This document shows positions 31,348 through 63,388 of a DNA stretch of 64,000 nt, one piece after another. Source of the DNA: Mesoplasma lactucae ATCC 49193. Lineage in GTDB: Bacteria > Bacillota_I > Bacilli_A > Mycoplasmatales > Mycoplasmataceae. Each line of letters opens with the position of its first letter. Position 1 is the stretch's first letter. The translations under genes and the position numbers were made by a program. The notes under the pieces were generated by a model that did not search any database, was not told the DNA's origin, and saw nothing but the letters and a program-made list of their open reading frames with translations. The stretch lies in assembly GCF_002441935.1 (NCBI RefSeq), contig NZ_CP023668.1:248001-312000 (forward strand), in the 5' to 3' direction.

Positions 31348-34284
31348 ATGGATAATAATATTGATAATTGAGAATCCTTACCAACTCAGGAAGTTGAAAA
31401 GGATTTAGATACAAATATTGAAACTGGATTAACAGATAAACAAGTTGAAGCTCGTTTAAGTAAATATGGTAAGAACGTTCTTCCACAAGGAAAAGTTCGT
31501 CCTTGATACATCACTTTTTTACTAGCTTTAGTTGAACCTCTACAAATCATTTTAATGATTGCTGCTGTAATTTCAGTTTTAGCGCCAAGAATTGGTGATT
31601 GACATCAACCAGTTCATGCTAGTGACTTCATTGATTTTATTGTGATTATTGCAATCGTTGTAATTGATGCAGTTTTAGAAACTGTACAAACTGTAAAGGC
31701 GAGAAAATCAGTTGATAGTTTAAAAACATTGTCAAAACCACGGGCTGTTGTCATGCGCGATGGCAAGCAAATGGAAATCGATGCTGCAGATCTTGTACCT
31801 GGTGACATCGTTTTAATTGAAGCTGGAAGATTTATCCCAGCTGAATTAAGAATTTTAGAAAGTTCTGAATTCACAGTTGATGAATCAATCCTGACTGGAG
31901 AATCTTTACCAGTTAATAAAAACGCCAATCCAATTAAACCAACAACCATTCTAGCTGATAAAACAAATATTTGTTTTATGAATACTTTTGCTGTTAATGG
32001 TCGTGCTGTTGGAGTTGTGATTAAAACTGGTGAAGAAACTGAAATTGGTAAGATTGCTGCAACTATTAATGCAAATACTGATACCAAAACCCCTTTAGAA
32101 AAGAAATTAACAAAATTCAGTTACTGAATTTCTGTTTTTGCAGTTTTAATTGCTGTTGTAATCTTCGTTTCTCTATACTTTACTGGAGAAAAAAACGCAT
32201 GAAGTAACTATCTAATGGTTGCGATTACTTTAGCAATCGGAGTTATTCCAGAATCACTTGCAGCTGTTGTTTCAATTACACTTTCATTTTCAACTAAACG
32301 TTTAGCTGAAGAAAACGTGATTGTTAAAAAACTAGCAAGCGTGGAAACTTTAGGTTCAGTTAACGTTATTTGTACAGATAAAACTGGAACCTTAACTCAA
32401 AATAGAATGACTGTTCAAAAAGTTATCACAGATAATAAAGTTGTTGATGCTAAAGAATATGTAAACTTGGCTAATAACTTTGAAAAAGATATCTTCAAAA
32501 AACTTCTATTACTACCAAATGATGCAGTAACTGAAGGCGAAGAAAGAATCGGAGATCCAACTGAATTAGCATTAGTTGATTTTGCTGAAAAGATGGGCGC
32601 TGATGAACAAGAATATCGTAAGAAATTCAAACGTATTGATGAGCTACCTTTTGATAGTGAAAGAAAATTAATGACTACAGTTAACAAAGATGGAAAAAAT
32701 AATATCATTTGTGTTAAAGGTGCTATTGATGAATTATTAAAAGTTTGTGACCGTATTTTATTAGATAATAAAGTTCAACATTTAGATGAAAAAATGAAAA
32801 AAGAAATCCTAAAAGAAAGTGGTTCACTTTCTAAAAACGCACTTCGTGTTTTAGGATTTGCTTATTCAGACGAACAAAAGAAAAAAGATTATGAAAAGAA
32901 CTTAATTTTCGTTGGTGCCGTTGGAATGATTGATCCGGTTCGTGATTCTGCTGTTAAAGCTGTTAAAGAAGCACACGATGCTGGAATTAGAGTTGTTATG
33001 ATCACAGGAGATCACCCGACAACTGCTTTAGCAATCGCTAAAGACTTGGACATTGCTTATACAGAATATGAAGTAATGACTAGTGCTACTTTAGAAAAAT
33101 TAAATGACCAACAATTATTACGTGTCATTGATAATATTAAAGTTTTTGCTCGTGTTAACCCTGAACATAAAGTTCGTATTGTCCAAGCTTTACAAGCTAA
33201 AGGAAATATTACTTCTATGACTGGAGATGGAGTTAACGATGCTCCAAGTTTAAGCATTGCTGATATTGGAGTTGCCATGGGGATTACTGGAACTGATGTT
33301 GCTAAACAAGCGGCCGACGTAATCTTAACTGATGACAACTTCTTAACAATGATGAAAGGGGTTAATGAAGGAAGAAACGTATGACAAAAAATTCGTCGTA
33401 CAATTGTTTTCCTTCTAGGAATTAATATTGCTAACGTTTTAGGAATTTTAATTATTTCCTTAATTAACCATACTTCACCATTAGAAGCTACTGACATTTT
33501 ATGAATCAACTTAGTTGTTGAATCATTATTAGCTATTTCAATGGGAATGGGTCCAAATGATGATTCTTTAATGTCACTTCCGCCAATTAAAGGAAACAAT
33601 GGTTTATTAAAAGGACTACTATGACCAATTATTAAAATCTCAACTATTCTTGCTGGATGTTTAATTGGTGCTTTCTATGTTGGAATGTTAGCAACTCCTG
33701 ATAATTTATTAACTATTAATAAAGATCAATTCGTTGCTGGTTCAACAATTCTTGGAGATGGTCCTTCTCATCAATTTGATTCATGAAAAGAATTATTAAA
33801 ATGTAACGAATTTATCCGTAACAGTGATGCAAAAATTAATGCAATTGTTTATGGCCGTACTGCAATGTTTATCGTTGCTACTTTATCACCAGCAATCATT
33901 GCTCACATCATTCGTTTATCAAACTGAAAATCATACAAACGTGTTGAATTTTCAATTAATAAATCATTATTAGTTGCTTCAATCATTGCTGTTGTTTTAA
34001 ACACTTTAATCTTATTTATTCCTGGATTAAATGATACTGTGTTTAGTTTAGTTGGAGATAAAAGTTGAACATCAAGCAATTGTTGAGTTATCTTTATGGC
34101 TATCGGATTTGCATTTGCAGCTCCAGCCTTAATCTTATTAACAGACGCAATTGTGTTCTTCGGATACCACTATGCTATTAACCCTTGAGAACGTAACCGT
34201 AAAATGGTAAGTGATCTTGTTAGAAAAGATCAAGCTCAAGAAAAAGCTGCTAAAAAGAAAAATAAACAAAAAAGAACAATATAG
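31348..34284 (+). CDS. P-type cation-transporting ATPase (P2 type)
   Basis: The product has 978 residues and carries all catalytic motifs: TGES in the actuator domain, phosphorylation site Asp344 in ICTDKTGTLTQNRM, KGA in the nucleotide domain, MITGDHPTTA, and MTGDGVNDAPSL (~625-636). The helix-4 ion site reads GVIPESLAAVVSIT. The overall plan (N-terminal cation-ATPase domain, ~10 helices, C-terminal membrane block) matches Ca2+ or Na+/K+-type P2 pumps; the ion cannot be fixed from sequence. A long polar loop after helix 7 (near GSTILGDGPSHQF) is unusual. It ends in a Lys-rich tail and a strong terminator. Compare the motif-less homologue at 57774-60506. Confidence 0.93.
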
Positions 34285-34417: not shown

Positions 34418-36883
34418 ATGGATAATAACGGACAAACAACCACTCTAGATGAATTAGAAGGCCTTTCAAATGATGCTTCTAATAATAAAGATGATAAAAG
34501 CACTGATAACTTTGACAAACAATCTTCTTTATTTACTAAACGTGAGTGAATTATGCGTTATGCAACACCTTTTAAGGCTTTAATGTTTATGGCTGGGCCA
34601 ATGGTTATCATTCAATTGGTTAACTCATTATACGGAATCGTTGATAAACAATTAGCTTTAAATTTCGCTGTTGATAATGTTTTATCAATGGTTATAGATG
34701 GCAAAATTACTGGTTATCTACATAATAATTTATCTGGTACAACACCAATATCGATTGATCATACTTCCATTGGAAGTATTGGAAATTGAAATGATAATGG
34801 ATTATTATTTGCGAAGCAGCTAATTAATGTTTCAACTCAATATTCAAATACGATTATTACTTTATTATCTGCTTTATCATTATTAACAGCTGTTGGAACC
34901 TCAATTCAATGAGGTCAAGCAATGGGTGCTCGTGATAAACAAAGAATGGATAGTGTTTTAGTAAACGGATTAATCCAAACTTTAATTATTAGTGCGGCTG
35001 GTATTCTAGTTCTACACTTTGTAGCGCCATACATTATTACAGCTCAAGCTAATATTTCTTATAGTATGCATGATACTTCATTAATCTTCATGCTATCAAA
35101 CAGTTATACTCAAATGTTTATTTGAGGATTTCCATTATTAGCTTTATCTGCATTCCTATCAACATTATTAAGAACTGAAGGAAAAGTGTGATGAGTAATC
35201 GGAATTAACTTAGCTTCAGTTATCTTAAACGTTGTTTTTGGAGAAATTTTCATGAACGCAGCTGCACCTGATAAGAAAATGCAAGCAGCCGTTTATGGAT
35301 CATTCTTAGCATGATCATTTGCTATTATTGCCATTTTAATGGTTATTTGTTTTTCTAAAAACACCTTATTAAGACCAAACTTTAAACACGTTCAATTGAA
35401 ATTAAAAACTGCAGGACAAATTTGATTAAATGGTTTATCACCATTCTTAGCAAACTTTATCTTCGCTGTTTCTAACTTTGTAACTACATTACTAATTACA
35501 ACAGCACATAATGGACCAGAAATTCGTGATGCAATTGTTGTTACTTATGAAGGTGGGGTTACTGATACAACTTATATTTCACCAACATTAAGAGTTATGT
35601 CATCTGCGTTCCCATGAATGAACATCTTATACGCACCAATTATCGGAATGATGGAAGGGGCTAATGCCAACTATTCATACTGTAAAGGTGCTCAAAAACG
35701 ATACAGATTAGTTCAAATTTGAAGAATCCACGTTTTAATGAGTATTGTTTGAGGAGTCTTCTGCTTAATCTTAATTGCTGTCGCAGGAGGCCCTATGATG
35801 AGAGCCTTTGATGGGCCAGCAGAATTAAAATGATGGTTTATGGCATATGTTTGTGGAATTGTCTTTGCGGCAATTTCTTATAGTGCTTTATCCTTATTCC
35901 AAGGAACAGGTCATCCAATTGATGCAACAATTACAGCGGTATTCCGTTCATTAATTTTTGGTGTTGGATTTATTGTAATTGGTTGAGCTATCGCTAGAAA
36001 AACACCTGATGGAACTGGCGATTGAGCAATCTTCTTATTAAACGGATTAAGTGAAATTCCAGCTACAATGGTTGCTTTCTTCTTCCTATACAGATTAGCT
36101 AAAAAAGAAATCGCAAGATATGCAATTAACGATTTACCTGATGATTTCAAATCACCAACTCTTCAAGATGCAGCTCAAAACGAAGTTACAATGTCTACTC
36201 AAGCTTCTATTAAAAACCTAAATCGTTGATTAAAAGGTAAAAACGACAAGTTAGACAAAGAAACTAAAGAAATTGAAGAACAAAAATCTGAATTGATTGC
36301 TTGAAAAAATAAAGAATTACAAACTGCAAGTCAACAAACTAATCCAAAAGAAGCTGAAAAAGCTGTATTAGATAGTTATGAAATCAAACTTGATGATATT
36401 AAAGCGAAAACTGAAAAAGTTAATGAAAAACATAAAGTTCTTCTTGCAAAATATGATTTAAATAAAGAACAAATCTATTACAAAGAAAAAATTAAACGTA
36501 TTAAAGTTGCTGAAAAATACAAATTTGATGTGTTTACTTTTGGAATCTCCCCAAGAGATACAGCAATTAAATTACTAGATCAAAAAGAAATGAAAGAAAT
36601 TTATAAGATTACAGTAAGTATTAATATTGCTACAAAAGAAGATGATATTAAAGAAACTGTTAAAGCTTACAATATTCGTCGTCAAAACCTTCAAGAAAAA
36701 ATGGACAAACATGATGCTAAATACGAAAAAATCGTTAGTGGAGAAAAGAAATTAACTCCATGAGAAGTATTATTTTCTCCAATTGAACCTCAACCTTTAT
36801 GAGCACTTCCAGCTAACAAAGAAGCGGAAGTTAAAAAGAAACGTTGAAAACAAATTAAAAGAACTGATAAAAAAGTCGATTAA
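34418..36883 (+). CDS. MATE-family efflux protein with long cytoplasmic tail
   Basis: The product has 821 residues against ~450 for most MATE transporters. Residues ~1-45 are a polar N-terminus. The membrane domain of about 12 helices follows, with MFMAGPMVIIQLVNSLYGIVD at helix 1 and the family-like AVGTSIQWGQAMGARDKQRMD and TLLRTEGKVWWV segments, including a polar loop after helix 1. From ~575 on, a tail of ~245 residues is hydrophilic, with a coiled coil around 600-690 and a Lys-rich end. MATE proteins export drugs or lipids using H+ or Na+. AAAGGGG precedes the ATG. It is a single-gene unit between two terminators. Confidence 0.82.
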
Positions 36884-57588: not shown

Positions 57589-57620
57589 AAAATTCCCTAG
57601 TGAAACACTAGGGAATTAAT
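57589..57620 (-). terminator. Terminator after tRNA-Lys
   Basis: Perfect stem AATTCCCTAGTG (57591-57602) / CACTAGGGAATT (57606-57617), downstream of the tRNA on the minus strand, followed by TTTTATTTTG. Confidence 0.8.
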
Positions 57621-57628
57621 TTTCTATT

Positions 57629-57704
57629 TGGTGTCCGCTGAGGGGATCGAACCCTCAACCCACAGATTAAGAGTCTGTTGCTCTACCGGTTGCGCTAAGC
57701 GGAC
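57629..57704 (-). tRNA. tRNA-Lys (anticodon CTT)
   Basis: Read on the minus strand, the 76 bases fold into a full cloverleaf: acceptor GTCCGCT / AGCGGAC, D-stem GCGC / GAGC (one mismatch), anticodon stem ACAGA / TCTGT with loop CTCTTAA, and T-arm GAGGG-TTCGATC-CCCTC. Discriminator A and an encoded CCA end are present. The anticodon CTT reads AAG lysine codons, the minor Lys codon in this AT-rich genome. It lies between ribF and the ATPase-like gene. Confidence 0.96.
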
Positions 57705-57773: not shown

Positions 57774-60506
57774 TTAGAATCATTGTTTTTGACGACGGAA
57801 ATAGATTTCTTTATTAAGGTCGACAAGACTCATCAATCCAAGCATGGCAATTGGCAAGATAACGAAGAATTCTCATTGTGGAGTTCTCATGCTAAATGCT
57901 GATTGTACTTTTGGAATTGTTGGTAAAGCAATGAAGAACACTGCTGCAAGAATCAAGGCAATCAACAATGGTTTTGTTGGTCTTGATTTTCAGAAACGCA
58001 CGAAGTTGTCTCTGGCTACAAAAATGAAGACTAAGTGAGAAATAGAATCTTCAATAAAAGCAGTTGATTGTAACTGTTGTAATTGAGCTTCTCAGTTTCC
58101 TTTTTCATTTCTGATGTCTGATAGCATGGTTGTATCAAAGGCGAAAATCATAATAATCATAACTATGATATGAATAAATAAGATAATTGCTGTATTTGAA
58201 AAGGCAAATGGAAGTAAGGACTTCGTGTCTCATTTAACTGGTTTTAACAAGTACTGCTCGTTAACATCATCGTAGATAATAGTATATTCAACAACGTTGT
58301 AAACCATGTTTTGAGCTAGTAATTGAATTGCCGTCATTGATTCATGGTTTAAAAGAATAATTCCAAATAATAATTTAGCAACTAATGAAATAGCTCCAGT
58401 ATTTTTTAACTTGATGTATTTCATTGTATTCATTAAACCAACACGCGAAGCACGAATTGAAGTGACGATTTGCATTAAATCTAAGTGGTTAACAACAAGA
58501 GTTGCAGCACTTTGAGCAAAGTTATCAGAACTATCAGTAGTGATTCCGATATCTTCTGTTAATAATTGGAAAGTATCTTCAATATCAGATCCAAGATATC
58601 CAACTGTATTTTCTTTTTTCTTGTATAGTTTTAAAACTCTTAATTCATCAGCTAAGTTCATGTTATAAAAAGCATTAGAAGTTTTCATTTTTTTATACAA
58701 TTGAGCGTCGCTTAATTTAGAAATTTCTTGACCATTAATAGCTTCTTCTAATTTGAAATCAAGCTCACGAGATAAGGCAATTAATTCACCTAAACTCTTT
58801 CTTGAGAATAAAACAACATTAATTTCTTCTTTTTGAATTTCTTTAATAATTGATGAACTTCCAGGTTTTACTGAGTTTTGGAAATCAACTCTACCTAAGA
58901 AATCATAATTTTTAAAGAATAATTCTTGGTTATTAAAGTTTTCATATTCTTTTTCTAAATATTTAAAGTCGATACCATAACTTAGGATTGCTCCTTGGCG
59001 TTCGTCTTTATATAAGTAGTTAACTTTTTGAGTTGGAGTAATTTTATTTAATTGTCCTTCTGCATTCATAGCCATTGTTGCCAATCCTAAAGAAGTGTCA
59101 ATCTTATCTCTTTTAATAATTAATTCTTTGTTTAATTGTTTATCTAAGAAATGTAAATAAACTCCTGAATCAACAGTAATACGGTTAATAAAGACATAAC
59201 GTTTTTTAAGTTCTTGTAATCTTGCTTTATATTCAGCAGCTTCTAAAACTGTTTTATTAAGATTTAAATCGGCTGAAGGTGATTCAGCAAATGATAATAA
59301 TAGATAGTCTATAATCAACGGATTGCTATAGCCATATAAATCTGAATAACTTTGAATACGGTAGTCATCATTTAAGAATGTTTTTGCAATATCAACTGCT
59401 AAAACATTCATAGATCCAATATTTTGAACTGAGGATAAATCACGAATTTGAATGTTCTTTTTAGCAAGTTGTCCTCTTGTTCTAGAAAAGGCTGCAGATA
59501 ACATCATTGGTAATCCATCAGGACTTAAAGCAATAGCTAAAGACATTGCAAACAGAATTGAGTCCACTCAAACACTGGCATTTCCAAATCCAGCTTTTGA
59601 ACCTTTTAATAAGGCTACAAGAATGAAAATTGTTGGTACAGCTATGATAACTGTATAAATAATTGTTCTTGTAATTTTTTTAATTTGAGTTGTAAAAGTA
59701 CTTTTGTTTTCTTGATTAGAAATTTTAGCAACTTGTTCTGCATAAACTGATTTATCAGGCGAAGTTAAAACTAATGCTCAACATCCACCACGAGTAACTT
59801 TAGTCCCACGATAAATAATGTTTGATAATTTAAAGATATCTTTTGAGAATGATGAATTGAAATATTTTTTATTAACAGGAACATTTGAACCAGTTAATAA
59901 TTCTTGGTCAACATAGAAGTCATCACCATATAAAACTCTTGCATCAGCTGGAATTACATCTCCCGCTTTAACATAAATAATATCTCCAACTAACATATTT
60001 TTAATATTAATTGTAGTTAAGTGTGTTTCTAATTGTTTTTCTTGATCCGGGGATGCAAACGGGTTTCCATTTTCATTTAAAACCACATTTCGCAAGACGT
60101 TAACGTTTTCAACGACACTAGATTGTTTTTGGTTTCCTTTTCAAATTCCATAGTTCGTAAATTCAGTTACGATAATTGAAATTGCAAGAGAACAAATAAT
60201 TAACCCAGCTCCAGCAATATATGTGTATTCTTCAGGATCAATTGAGAACATAACTAAGTTATAAACAACAATCGCACACAAAATTAAAGTAAAAGCATCT
60301 TTGAATGAATCAATAAAGTATTTAAATCATGGAAATTTTTCCTTTTTTCCAACTTTTTTGGTTTTATCAGCCACATACTTTTCAGTTAAACCGAAAGTTG
60401 GTACATTTAAAGCGTCTAAAGTTTCTGGAATTGAACTATTGGCAAATTTTGTAATTTTACTTGCTGATGGAGACTTGGTTTTTTTTCTTTTTTGTCTTTT
60501 AGCCAT
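57774..60506 (-). CDS. MgtA-like P-type ATPase lacking catalytic motifs (pseudoenzyme)
   Basis: The product has 910 residues and keeps the full P-type plan: N-terminal cytoplasmic part, helix pair, actuator domain, helix-4 segment ALSPDGLPMML (MgtA-like), P/N domains and a C-terminal block of about six helices including SISHLVFIFVARDNFVRFWKSRP as in Mg2+ pumps. But the catalytic motifs are changed. TGES reads TGSN (205-208), DKTGT reads DIAKT (Asp372 kept, Lys-Thr-Gly lost), no KGA motif is seen, TGD reads SRK in VVLFSRKSLGEL, and GDGVND reads GSDIED (639-644). The frame is open throughout, so it is maintained, not a simple pseudogene. TGA Trp codons split it in the standard code. GGAGAAAAATAG precedes the ATG. 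Confidence 0.85.
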
Positions 60507-60568: not shown

Positions 60569-60607
60569 TTAATCAACTAAAACAAAGACTAAAAAGTGAG
60601 AAAAATA

Positions 60608-60639
60608 AAAAAATAAGACTATGATAGTCTTATTTTAAA
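60608..60639 (-). terminator. Terminator of the YhgE/Pip gene
   Basis: Stem AAAATAAGACT (60610-60620) / AGTCTTATTTT (60626-60636) with a T run on the minus strand, just after the gene's stop at 60641. Confidence 0.82.
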
Positions 60640-60640
60640 A

Positions 60641-63388
60641 TTATTCATTTCTAGTGATTGTATCTTCATCACTATAGTTAGGTTTTTGAACAAAATCATG
60701 TTCTTTTCTTCTTCATCATTTGAATGATCCTTCATAATCAGACATTTCATGACATTTGAAGTATAAGTCAGGATTAAATCCATCTGGTAAAGCTTTTCAA
60801 TTATATTTGTAGTGTTTTTTACCAGTTCTTGAAGTTCATTTTACAGTTCTGAAGTTGTTTAATTCTTCAGTTCTTCCAAGTTCTTCTAGACCTTTTGAAA
60901 CTTCGTGACCATAACGTGATCCATAATCCATATCTTTCATTAAAGCAGGAGCTGCTACGAATAACCCGATTGGGAAGAAGATGGCAATGTAGATTCATAA
61001 GAATCCGAATTGTTGGAGAATGAATTTTGTTGAAGTTGCGGTAGTTCCATAGTCACCAACCCCGTAGATAATTTCACCAGTCGCTCTCAATACATATGTA
61101 AATGGAACAACATATGAAATTGCGTTGAAGAATCCGAATTGTGAGAATGCTGGGAAAGTTCCCCCTCCAGCTGTAAGTGAAAATACCATTACAAGTACAC
61201 AACAGAATCTTCCGATTGCTTCATCTTCAACTAAGAACCATAAGGATTGAACTATGGTTATAAAGACGAGATCTGCAAACAAGAGCATTAACCAAATGTA
61301 GCACATTGTTGTAGCTCCAAGTTCATGCCATCCGACGGCATAGGCAATTCAAACTTCTAATGTAGTTTGGAAGAATGTTACTGTTGCAAATAACATGAAT
61401 TTAGAGATATATCAGTTTGATCATTTAGCACGTGATAAACGTTTAGCTCTATCGAAGATGAATGTTTGTAATAAACATCCGATGTATAGACCAATCACTA
61501 AGAAGAATTGTCCTAAACCAAATCCATAAATTCCAAATTGTTTTCCTTGGATTGTTAAATTAGTAACATGTTCTGGAGTTAATCCATGAGTTGCACTACT
61601 AATTGCTGAAGAAAAGATTTTTGGTAATAATTCTTTAGCAGTAGTTGCTCCAAAGAAAGTGTCTTGGTTTAAAGAAATAAATTTATCAAAGTTTTGACTA
61701 AATGAAACTTGTCCTTTAGCATCATTTTTTAATGGCATAATTGAACCATCTGAGTTAAATAATGGAGTGAATTTTAATGAAGTAATGTCTCCAATATCTT
61801 TTCCAGTTGTTGATTTAATAATAGCTTTAATAATTTTTGCTAAATTGGAATTAGCACTTGGCGTTTTTCCAGTTCTAGCGACCTCATAAGCTTCATTATT
61901 TAAAGCAATTAATACATCATCAGTAACATTTGATCCAAGAACACTTTTAACTGCATCAGCAATTTCAGTGATTAAGGAAATAATATTTTGGATATCAGGA
62001 CTAATTCCTAAAGCTTTTCCAATTGACCCAAGAGTATTTCCGAAATTAGGATCATTTGCTAATGTTAGTAAGGTTTGAATTGTAGCTATGAATTTTCCAC
62101 CAACTTCGTCAGCTGAGGCCCCAGCTGCAGCACCGGTATTACCAAACAATGAATATCCTTTAACAACTTTGTTGTCTGAACTCATTGGTAAGTTTGCAGC
62201 TGTTGGAATTACATATTCAGTTGCATCATCTAAAGTTGGAGTAATTTGTTCGTTTGCACCAATCGCAGCACGAATTACAGCACCTTTATAAGAAATTTTT
62301 GCTCCACCTTGTGAGACAAGAGTTGAATTCACTAAGGCTGGAATCGATTTAATAACTACTCCATCAAGTACACTTGAAGCAGTATTTAAGATATATCCGA
62401 AAATAAAGTTTCTTTCGAATGTAGTTCAAATATCTAATGGTTTCATTGAATTAACCAAATCATTTAAAGCTTGATCTGAATCACTTGGACTTGTCATCAT
62501 AGCTCCTAAATATGAAGTTAATTTTTCCATATAACCATCAGGAATATTAAATTGAACGTAATATTTAGTTCCTTGTCATTGTTTTTCAATTTCTTTAGGA
62601 TCATTTACATATTTTACGTTTGTTAACTGTTTTCCATCAGCTCCCATTGATGAGAACTTATAGTCAGTATCTTTTTTATTCGGATCTGTTTTTGGTTCAA
62701 ATCCTTTTTTCATCATGTCTCAACCACTAGCAACTTTTAAGCTAAAAGTTGGGTTAGTGTTGTCATATTGGAAACGTTGTTTTTCTTGTTTATCATTTTC
62801 AGTTGTTAAGACAATATCAGGAGCACCCTTGGTTGCTTCTTCATTTAATAAACGATTTAATGTTGCTTCAACACCAGCTACAGCAGCTTCTGTTTCTAGA
62901 AGTTGTGATGGGATTACTCAAGAACCCATTTCAGAATAATGAATTGGATAATTATCAGTATCATATCCACCATATTCTGGTTTTCTTAATTCTTCATTTA
63001 ATCTTTCAGGAGTAATTACCTGGCTATTGGTTGTTGTTTTAACAATTTTGTTCAACGGCCCATAGGCATAATTATCTTTATTATTATTTGTTGTTTTTGA
63101 TGGGTTTTCTTTTGATGACTGTACTAAAATAATGCTATTTTCATTATTTAAGACAACAGTTGGTGCCTTTCCTAATTCGTCAATTGGATTTCAGAAGGCT
63201 ATTACACAAAGAACCCCATAAATAATTGGGATACAAGAGATCCCAATAAATTTAATAATACGTTTTCAGCTTCTAAAGATTCTGTCTTCTAACTCAACTA
63301 CATAAGAGTCTCAAGTTAGTTTACATCATTCTCCAGTACGCTTAAAAAAACTTTTTTTGGGTTCTTTTGGGTTTTTATTTTTTTTCAT
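60641..63388 (-). CDS. YhgE/Pip-family membrane protein
   Basis: The product has 915 residues. A basic cytoplasmic start and one helix (~34-56) lead into AFWNPIDELGKAPTVVLNNE, the family's opening signature (YhgE, phage infection protein Pip, EsaA-like). A large extracytoplasmic domain of ~550 residues follows, then about six helices with the family's SLTAGGGTFPAFSQFGFFNAISYVVPFTYVLRATG-type region (61080-61190) as in ABC-2 permeases, and a polar tail of ~120 residues rich in aromatic and charged residues. Known members take part in phage adsorption or type VII secretion; here the partner is unknown. AGGAAGG precedes the ATG. The tail is longer than usual. Confidence 0.85.

What the first reader, a model, noticed from the sequence alone, without database searches (positions are those of the whole stretch)
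57774..60506. A full-length P-type ATPase homologue with all catalytic motifs replaced
Seen: TGES is TGSN, DKTGT is DIAKT, no KGA motif, TGD is SRK and GDGVND is GSDIED, yet the frame is open over 910 codons and the helix-4 SPDGLP and C-terminal Mg2+-pump-like helices are kept. Known: P-type pumps need Asp in DKTGT plus TGES and GDGVND to cycle. Inference: it cannot pump by the usual cycle and may be a sensor, a channel-like or regulatory subunit of a real pump (one is at 31348-34284), or a scaffold. A maintained P-type pseudoenzyme in a reduced genome is unusual.
Basis: partly seen in the sequence, partly recalled or inferred. Interest (0 to 1): 0.72.

Follow-up and report, generated by a model that had tools for sequence, protein, structure and literature searches.

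The report
Maintained, catalytically dead P-type pump relative
Six related mollicute genomes keep a full-length copy of a magnesium-pump-like membrane protein whose ATP-using machinery and ion-binding site have both been lost, so it probably does a non-pumping job that nobody has yet described.

Summary
Window 57774-60506 (-, code 4) encodes a 910-aa full-length relative of MgtA (P3B, Mg2+ P-type ATPase) whose catalytic motifs are gone; only the phospho-accepting Asp (D372) and a Ser/Thr of the TGD motif remain. It is neither an error nor decay. Five orthologues (29-58% identical) in three genera of the family share the loss, form one clade (100/100) and stay open. For the closest pair dN is 0.34 and dS about 2. 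None of 23 nucleotide-domain positions conserved in real pumps is kept. The Mg2+ site of M5/M7/M8 is also gone: N709 is Leu/Ile, S776 is I/L/F and D780 is H/N/S/A/M (E. coli numbering). In its place are substitutions invariant in all six: T702K, S712K, G810D and E331D. AlphaFold still gives a complete P-type fold, closest to MgtA. A second, separate pseudo-pump clade (three genomes) arose in the same family; one member occupies the same yhgE-ribF interval. All six genomes also carry a canonical MgtA. I read it as a neofunctionalised, non-pumping membrane pseudoenzyme, probably a scaffold or regulator beside an exporter or MgtA. That role is inferred. I found no published bacterial example; human TMEM94 is the nearest analogue.

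The parts
57774..60506 (-). P-type pseudo-ATPase gene (PS1), 910 aa, MgtA-like
59883..59894 (-). TGES position, reads TGSN (205-208)
59508..59522 (-). M4 unwound segment PDGLP (329-333); E331 of E. coli MgtA is D330, Asp in all six orthologues
59379..59393 (-). DKTGT position, reads DIAKT (372-376); Asp kept in all six, rest lost
58917..59342 (-). N (nucleotide) domain, about 389-530; 0 of 23 pump-conserved positions kept
58797..58805 (-). TGD position, reads SRK (568-570)
58575..58592 (-). GDGxND position, reads GSDIED (639-644)
58404..58406 (-). K701 in M5, invariant in the clade, Thr (T702) in pumps
58374..58376 (-). K711 in M5, invariant in the clade, Ser (S712) in pumps
58047..58049 (-). 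D820 in M8, invariant in the clade, Gly (G810) in pumps
60641..63388 (-). YhgE/Pip-type (ABC-2-like) membrane protein gene, upstream neighbour; also next to the pseudo-pump in G001 and G059, and next to a second-clade pseudo-pump in G005
60602..60635 (-). A+T-rich hairpin followed by a T run between yhgE and PS1 (possible terminator), read by eye; not flagged by the scan, whose GC threshold it misses. A TATAAT-like box and GGAG ribosome-binding site follow
57629..57704 (-). tRNA-Lys (CTT) just downstream of PS1, then a strong terminator-like hairpin at 57591-57617

Best explanation
It is a maintained pseudoenzyme derived from a P3B (MgtA-like) pump. Shown by sequence: loss of the phosphorylation, dephosphorylation, Mg-ATP and nucleotide-binding residues; loss of the known Mg2+ site; retention of the overall fold (model); purifying selection. 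Inferred: it cannot phosphorylate, dephosphorylate or transport Mg2+ as MgtA does; the invariant Lys711 (M5) and Asp820 (M8), which should lie at similar depth one turn outside the old Mg2+ site, form a buried ion pair that fixes the membrane domain; and the protein works as a non-pumping membrane scaffold or regulatory subunit. The best genomic hint for a partner is the adjacent YhgE/Pip-type membrane protein; canonical MgtA is the second candidate.
For: Six orthologues in 60 family and 320 order genomes, with a large score gap to real pumps (430-1937 bits versus at most 290; by profile 1335-1391, where the scored members are among the model's own sequences, versus at most 496). One clade 100/100. 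Shared motif loss. dN 0.343, dS 1.96 for G000-G001, in the range of the neighbours nfo and ribF. Site table: D780, N709, N706, S776 and F445 lost; K701, K711, D820 and D330 invariant. Pump-conserved columns: N domain 0 of 23 kept. AlphaFold pLDDT 82.3, pTM 0.77; best match 8uy7 MgtA, Z 38.9 over 850 residues. Mutating D373, E215, D780 or E331 impairs or abolishes MgtA function (PMC10925321). All six genomes also have an intact MgtA. yhgE is the upstream neighbour in G000, G001 and G059 (15-147 bp), and of a separate pseudo-pump in G005.
Against: No partner has been demonstrated. In the other three orthologue genomes the gene lies next to a MATE gene, a pair of ABC exporters, or convergent to an ABC transporter. 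In the window itself a hairpin seems to end yhgE before PS1. yhgE also occurs without PS1 in several genomes. dS is nearly saturated. D372 is kept, so residual phosphorylation cannot be formally excluded.
Confidence: 0.6

Rival explanations
1. Regulatory or dominant subunit of the canonical MgtA of the same cell: it would form heterodimers through the P and N domains and lower or tune pumping, as a dead protomer.
For: E. coli MgtA is a homodimer through its P and N domains (PMC10925321); all six PS1 genomes carry an intact MgtA; the fold is MgtA-like; K548 of the dimer interface is kept in all six.
Against: Other interface positions (Q380, K382) are not conserved in PS1, and E582/E549 are not conserved in these MgtAs either. 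The N domain is the least conserved part (mean pairwise identity 0.23 versus 0.61 in MgtA). The genes are not linked.
Confidence: 0.2
2. A channel-like or facilitated transporter that uses the kept M4 unwound segment (P329-D330-x-L-P333) and M6 Asn733 without ATP.
For: The M4 Pro-acid-x-Leu-Pro element and M6 Q732/N733 are invariant; a P-type pump can be turned into a cation channel by palytoxin (the entry title of 9vj0 says so).
Against: Two invariant Lys residues in M5 and loss of D780, N709 and N706 should oppose cation passage.
Confidence: 0.1
3. It still runs an unusual, slow phosphorylation cycle, or a nucleotide-gated switch, using D372 and Ser/Thr568.
For: D372 is invariant and the Ser/Thr of the TGD motif is kept in all six.
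Against: K374, T375, the first Asp of GDGxND (S/A/R/K/K/K) and the motif-III Lys are lost in all six; N-domain ATP residues (F445, K468) are lost.
Confidence: 0.08
4. Ordinary pseudogene in slow decay after duplication of mgtA.
For: Faster evolution than MgtA (57.7% versus 76.5% identity for the same genome pair); patchy presence (6 of 60 genomes).
Against: Full-length open frames of about 910-934 aa in six genomes down to 29% identity; dN far below dS; invariant clade-specific residues; a confident fold.
Confidence: 0.02

Closest known systems
MgtA/MgtB, P3B Mg2+ P-type ATPases (TIGR01524; PDB 8uy7)
   Same: Full-length collinear alignment (14-909), same predicted domain order (M1-2, A, M3-4, P/N, M5-10); best fold match.
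   Different: Scores half the family cut-off; catalytic motifs, ATP site and M5/M7/M8 Mg2+ site lost; clade-specific Lys/Asp in the membrane.
Human TMEM94 / ERMA (PMC12134183)
   Same: P-type-like architecture without TGES; the reported structures show no nucleotide at the proposed site, no bound Mg2+ and no ATPase activity; a candidate Asp is kept.
   Different: Eukaryotic ER protein whose status is disputed (another paper calls it an ER Mg2+ ATPase, PMC13322241). No homology to PS1 was tested here; the likeness is of kind only.
Second mollicute pseudo-pump clade found here (PS2: G004, G005, G051)
   Same: MgtA-derived, degenerate motifs (TGE to RGK/RGS, catalytic Asp to Asn in two, DVKGV in the third), full length; in G005 in the same yhgE-ribF interval.
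   Different: Separate origin (AU p 0.0026 against one clade); lacks the K701/K711/D820 set and keeps N706 and D738.
P2-type Ca2+-ATPase-like pump at window 31348-34284
   Same: P-type ATPase.
   Different: Catalytic motifs intact, different subfamily (TIGR01522 and TIGR01116 are the best hits, below cut-off); no link to PS1 found.

Membership tests
P-type ATPase superfamily (active pump) | DKTGT phosphorylation motif | tested here: not met
   DIAKT; only Asp kept in all six orthologues
P-type ATPase superfamily (active pump) | TGES dephosphorylation loop | tested here: not met
   TGSN in the window; Glu kept in one of six orthologues
P-type ATPase superfamily (active pump) | TGD and GDGxND hinge / Mg2+ motifs | tested here: not met
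   SRK and GSDIED; the first Asp of GDGxND is S/A/R/K/K/K
P-type ATPase superfamily (active pump) | N-domain ATP-binding residues (Phe445, Lys468 and others) | tested here: not met
   0 of 23 pump-conserved columns kept in at least five members
P-type ATPase superfamily (fold) | A, P, N domains and membrane helices in order | tested here: met
   AlphaFold pLDDT 82.3; VIA Z 38.9 to 8uy7 over 850 residues; Pfam PF00122 and PF00689 in all six
P3B Mg2+ pumps (TIGR01524 equivalog) | Curated score of at least 610.75 bits | tested here: not met
   310.5 bits
P3B Mg2+ pumps | Mg2+ site of M5/M7/M8 (N709, S776, D780, S813) | tested here: not met
   L/I, I/L/F, H/N/S/A/S/M; S813 is S/S/I/T/T/A
P3B Mg2+ pumps | Mg2+ transport or ATP hydrolysis | not testable with these tools
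   needs biochemistry
Pseudoenzyme | Catalytic residues lost but gene kept under purifying selection | tested here: met
Pseudoenzyme | No residual enzyme activity | not testable with these tools
   needs purified protein
TMEM94-like proteins | Sequence homology to TMEM94 | not tested
   TMEM94 sequence was not compared; likeness taken from the text of PMC12134183

The most novel reading that the evidence does not exclude
Mollicutes have at least twice turned an MgtA-type pump into a 'pseudo-pump': a P-type ATPase fold that no longer uses ATP or carries its ion, with (in the clade of this finding) the ion path rebuilt around a buried Lys-Asp pair, and recruited as an accessory subunit of a neighbouring membrane exporter (YhgE/Pip or others). 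This would be the first described class of bacterial P-type pseudo-ATPases.
Probability: 0.25. Interest if true: 0.78.

Novelty: new variant of a known kind. Interest (0 to 1): 0.62.

Why it matters
P-type ATPases are treated as coupled pumps defined by DKTGT, and pseudoenzymes, well known elsewhere (from general knowledge), appear hardly described for them. A bacterial clade that has lost both catalysis and the ion site, yet keeps the fold under selection in genomes of about 0.8-1.0 Mb, gives a genetically simple case to ask what the P-type architecture can do without ATP. It bears on the TMEM94/ERMA dispute, and it warns that annotation as 'magnesium-translocating P-type ATPase' can be wrong.

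Tried and rejected
Sequence error: rejected, since independent assemblies of other species share the losses. Recent pseudogene: rejected. A single origin for both degenerate clades: rejected by AU test, p 0.0026, with the caveat of long branches. A simple operon with yhgE in the window: weakened by an A+T-rich hairpin between the genes (not flagged by the scan). Viral spread: no relative in IMG/VR with this method. The first single-protein scan of GTDB contigs found nothing; the alignment scan found three named relatives. Structure of the YhgE neighbour: too poor to use (pLDDT 52), so not searched. Literature searches for P-type pseudoenzymes gave no paper in the open-access library, which does not prove absence.

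Full report
What is there. Under genetic code 4, window 57774-60506 (-) is an open frame of 910 codons. The window lies in a single-contig 837,471-bp genome. Pfam finds the E1-E2_ATPase and Cation_ATPase_C domains; the HAD hydrolase and N-domain models do not match. The best whole-protein model is the Mg2+-translocating ATPase TIGR01524, aligned over residues 14-909 at 310.5 bits, half its cut-off of 610.75.

Not an accident. Among 60 genomes of the family and 320 of the order, only six encode an orthologue: the window's genome G000, its congener G001 (58%), G059, G054, G052 and G053 (29-35%). The next hits, at about 22-28%, include the ordinary MgtA pumps. By profile the two orthologues drawn in the class-wide sample score 1335-1391 bits (they are among the model's own sequences), canonical pumps at most 496. 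The six form one clade with full support and a long stem. For G000-G001, dN is 0.343 and dS about 1.96 (near saturation), in line with the neighbours nfo and ribF and slower than a nearby lipoprotein, though faster than MgtA. So the gene is kept by selection.

What is lost and what is gained. I aligned the six with E. coli MgtA (chain 8uy7, whose numbering matches E331 and D373 of the paper) and used the published sites (PMC10925321; PMC13174805). Of 23 N-domain positions conserved in real pumps none is kept. K374, T375, the first Asp of GDGxND, F445 and K468 are lost in all six. In that work, mutating D373, E215, D780 or E331 impaired or abolished MgtA function. The M5/M7/M8 Mg2+ site is lost too: N709 is L/I, N706 is A/T/S, S776 is I/L/F and D780 is H/N/S/A/S/M, while the MgtA of the same six genomes keeps Asn, Asn, Ser and Asp. 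In exchange, several residues are invariant in the six and different in pumps: K701 (T702), K711 (S712), D820 (G810), D330 (E331), D641 (G642), R355 (K356) and others. Positions 712 and 810 should be one helical turn outside the old Mg2+ site on M5 and M8. I infer, but could not measure, a buried Lys-Asp pair there.

Fold. AlphaFold with 35 window- and locus-derived sequences gives pLDDT 82.3 and pTM 0.77, with the P-domain segments mostly at about 80-90. The best solved match is E. coli MgtA (TM 0.77; Z 38.9 over 850 residues), followed by other P-type pumps. The predicted architecture is intact though the chemistry is gone. The alignment included real pumps, which may pull the model towards their fold.

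Surroundings. In G000, G001 and G059 the order is yhgE/Pip-type gene, pseudo-pump, ribF, nfo; in G055 and G056 yhgE and ribF are next to each other without a pseudo-pump. In G054, G052 and G053 the gene lies elsewhere, next to a MATE gene, two ABC exporters, or convergent to an ABC transporter. In the window an A+T-rich hairpin (60602-60635, seen by eye; the scan did not flag it) and promoter-like bases separate yhgE from PS1, so co-transcription is not assured; in G059 the gap is about 15 bp. A tRNA-Lys lies just downstream, so the spot may simply be an insertion site.

A second, separate case. Three other genomes (G004, G005, G051) carry another degenerate MgtA-like clade (100/100): TGE is RGK or RGS, the catalytic Asp is Asn in two, and DKTGT is DVKGV in the third. 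Holding both clades together is rejected (AU p 0.0026), though long branches are in play. In G005 this pseudo-pump also sits right after a yhgE gene upstream of ribF-nfo. Two losses, one shared address: suggestive of a link with YhgE/Pip, but resting on one genome. Of 59 P-type-like frames in the loci held, exactly these nine lack DKTG[TS] and/or GDGxND.

How it most likely works. Shown by sequence: loss of catalytic, nucleotide and Mg2+-site residues; kept fold (model); purifying selection; canonical MgtA present in all six genomes. Inferred: no pumping; a membrane domain held in one state by the new charges; a role as scaffold or regulator of a partner. I put YhgE/Pip or another exporter first and MgtA second; neither is demonstrated. 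YhgE/PIP proteins are themselves poorly understood; one paper speculates on small-molecule transport or a link to type VII secretion (PMC4999554).

Comparison. The nearest analogue in kind is human TMEM94, whose structures lack TGES and showed no nucleotide at the site, no Mg2+ binding and no ATPase activity (PMC12134183), though others call it an ER Mg2+ ATPase (PMC13322241). No open-access paper in the library pairs P-type ATPase with pseudoenzyme. PS1 belongs to the P-type fold family but fails the tests for an active P-type ATPase and for a P3B Mg2+ pump. I call it a new variant of a known kind: a P-type pseudo-ATPase clade.

Noticed in passing
G004:C1:785759-788434, G005:C62:2661-5354, G051:C1:222170-224827 (loci L051, L047, L049): A second, separate clade of MgtA-like pseudo-pumps with degenerate catalytic motifs (TGE to RGK/RGS; catalytic Asp to Asn in two).
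   Followed up: partly
Loci L042-L046, L048 (G054, G053, G052, G002, G004, G050): An MgtA paralogue group, mostly with intact catalytic motifs (L048 lacks the TGE Glu), that lacks Mg2+-site residues D780 and N709; several have a permease-like gene next to them. Substrate probably not Mg2+ by the MgtA site.
   Followed up: partly
window 60641-63388: YhgE/Pip-type ABC-2-like membrane protein of 915 aa, below curated cut-offs; a second, more distant copy at G000:C1:161995-164454 has an in-frame TAA in one matched stretch.
   Followed up: partly
L037:5807-6259 (G059): A MarR-type regulator gene lies directly before yhgE and the pseudo-pump in the same orientation.
   Followed up: no
window 34418-36883: A multi-spanning membrane protein (MATE-like to the eye) of 821 aa with a long charged, coiled-coil-like C-terminal extension.
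   Followed up: no
window 57629-57704: tRNA-Lys (CTT) between the pseudo-pump and ribF, a possible insertion site.
   Followed up: no
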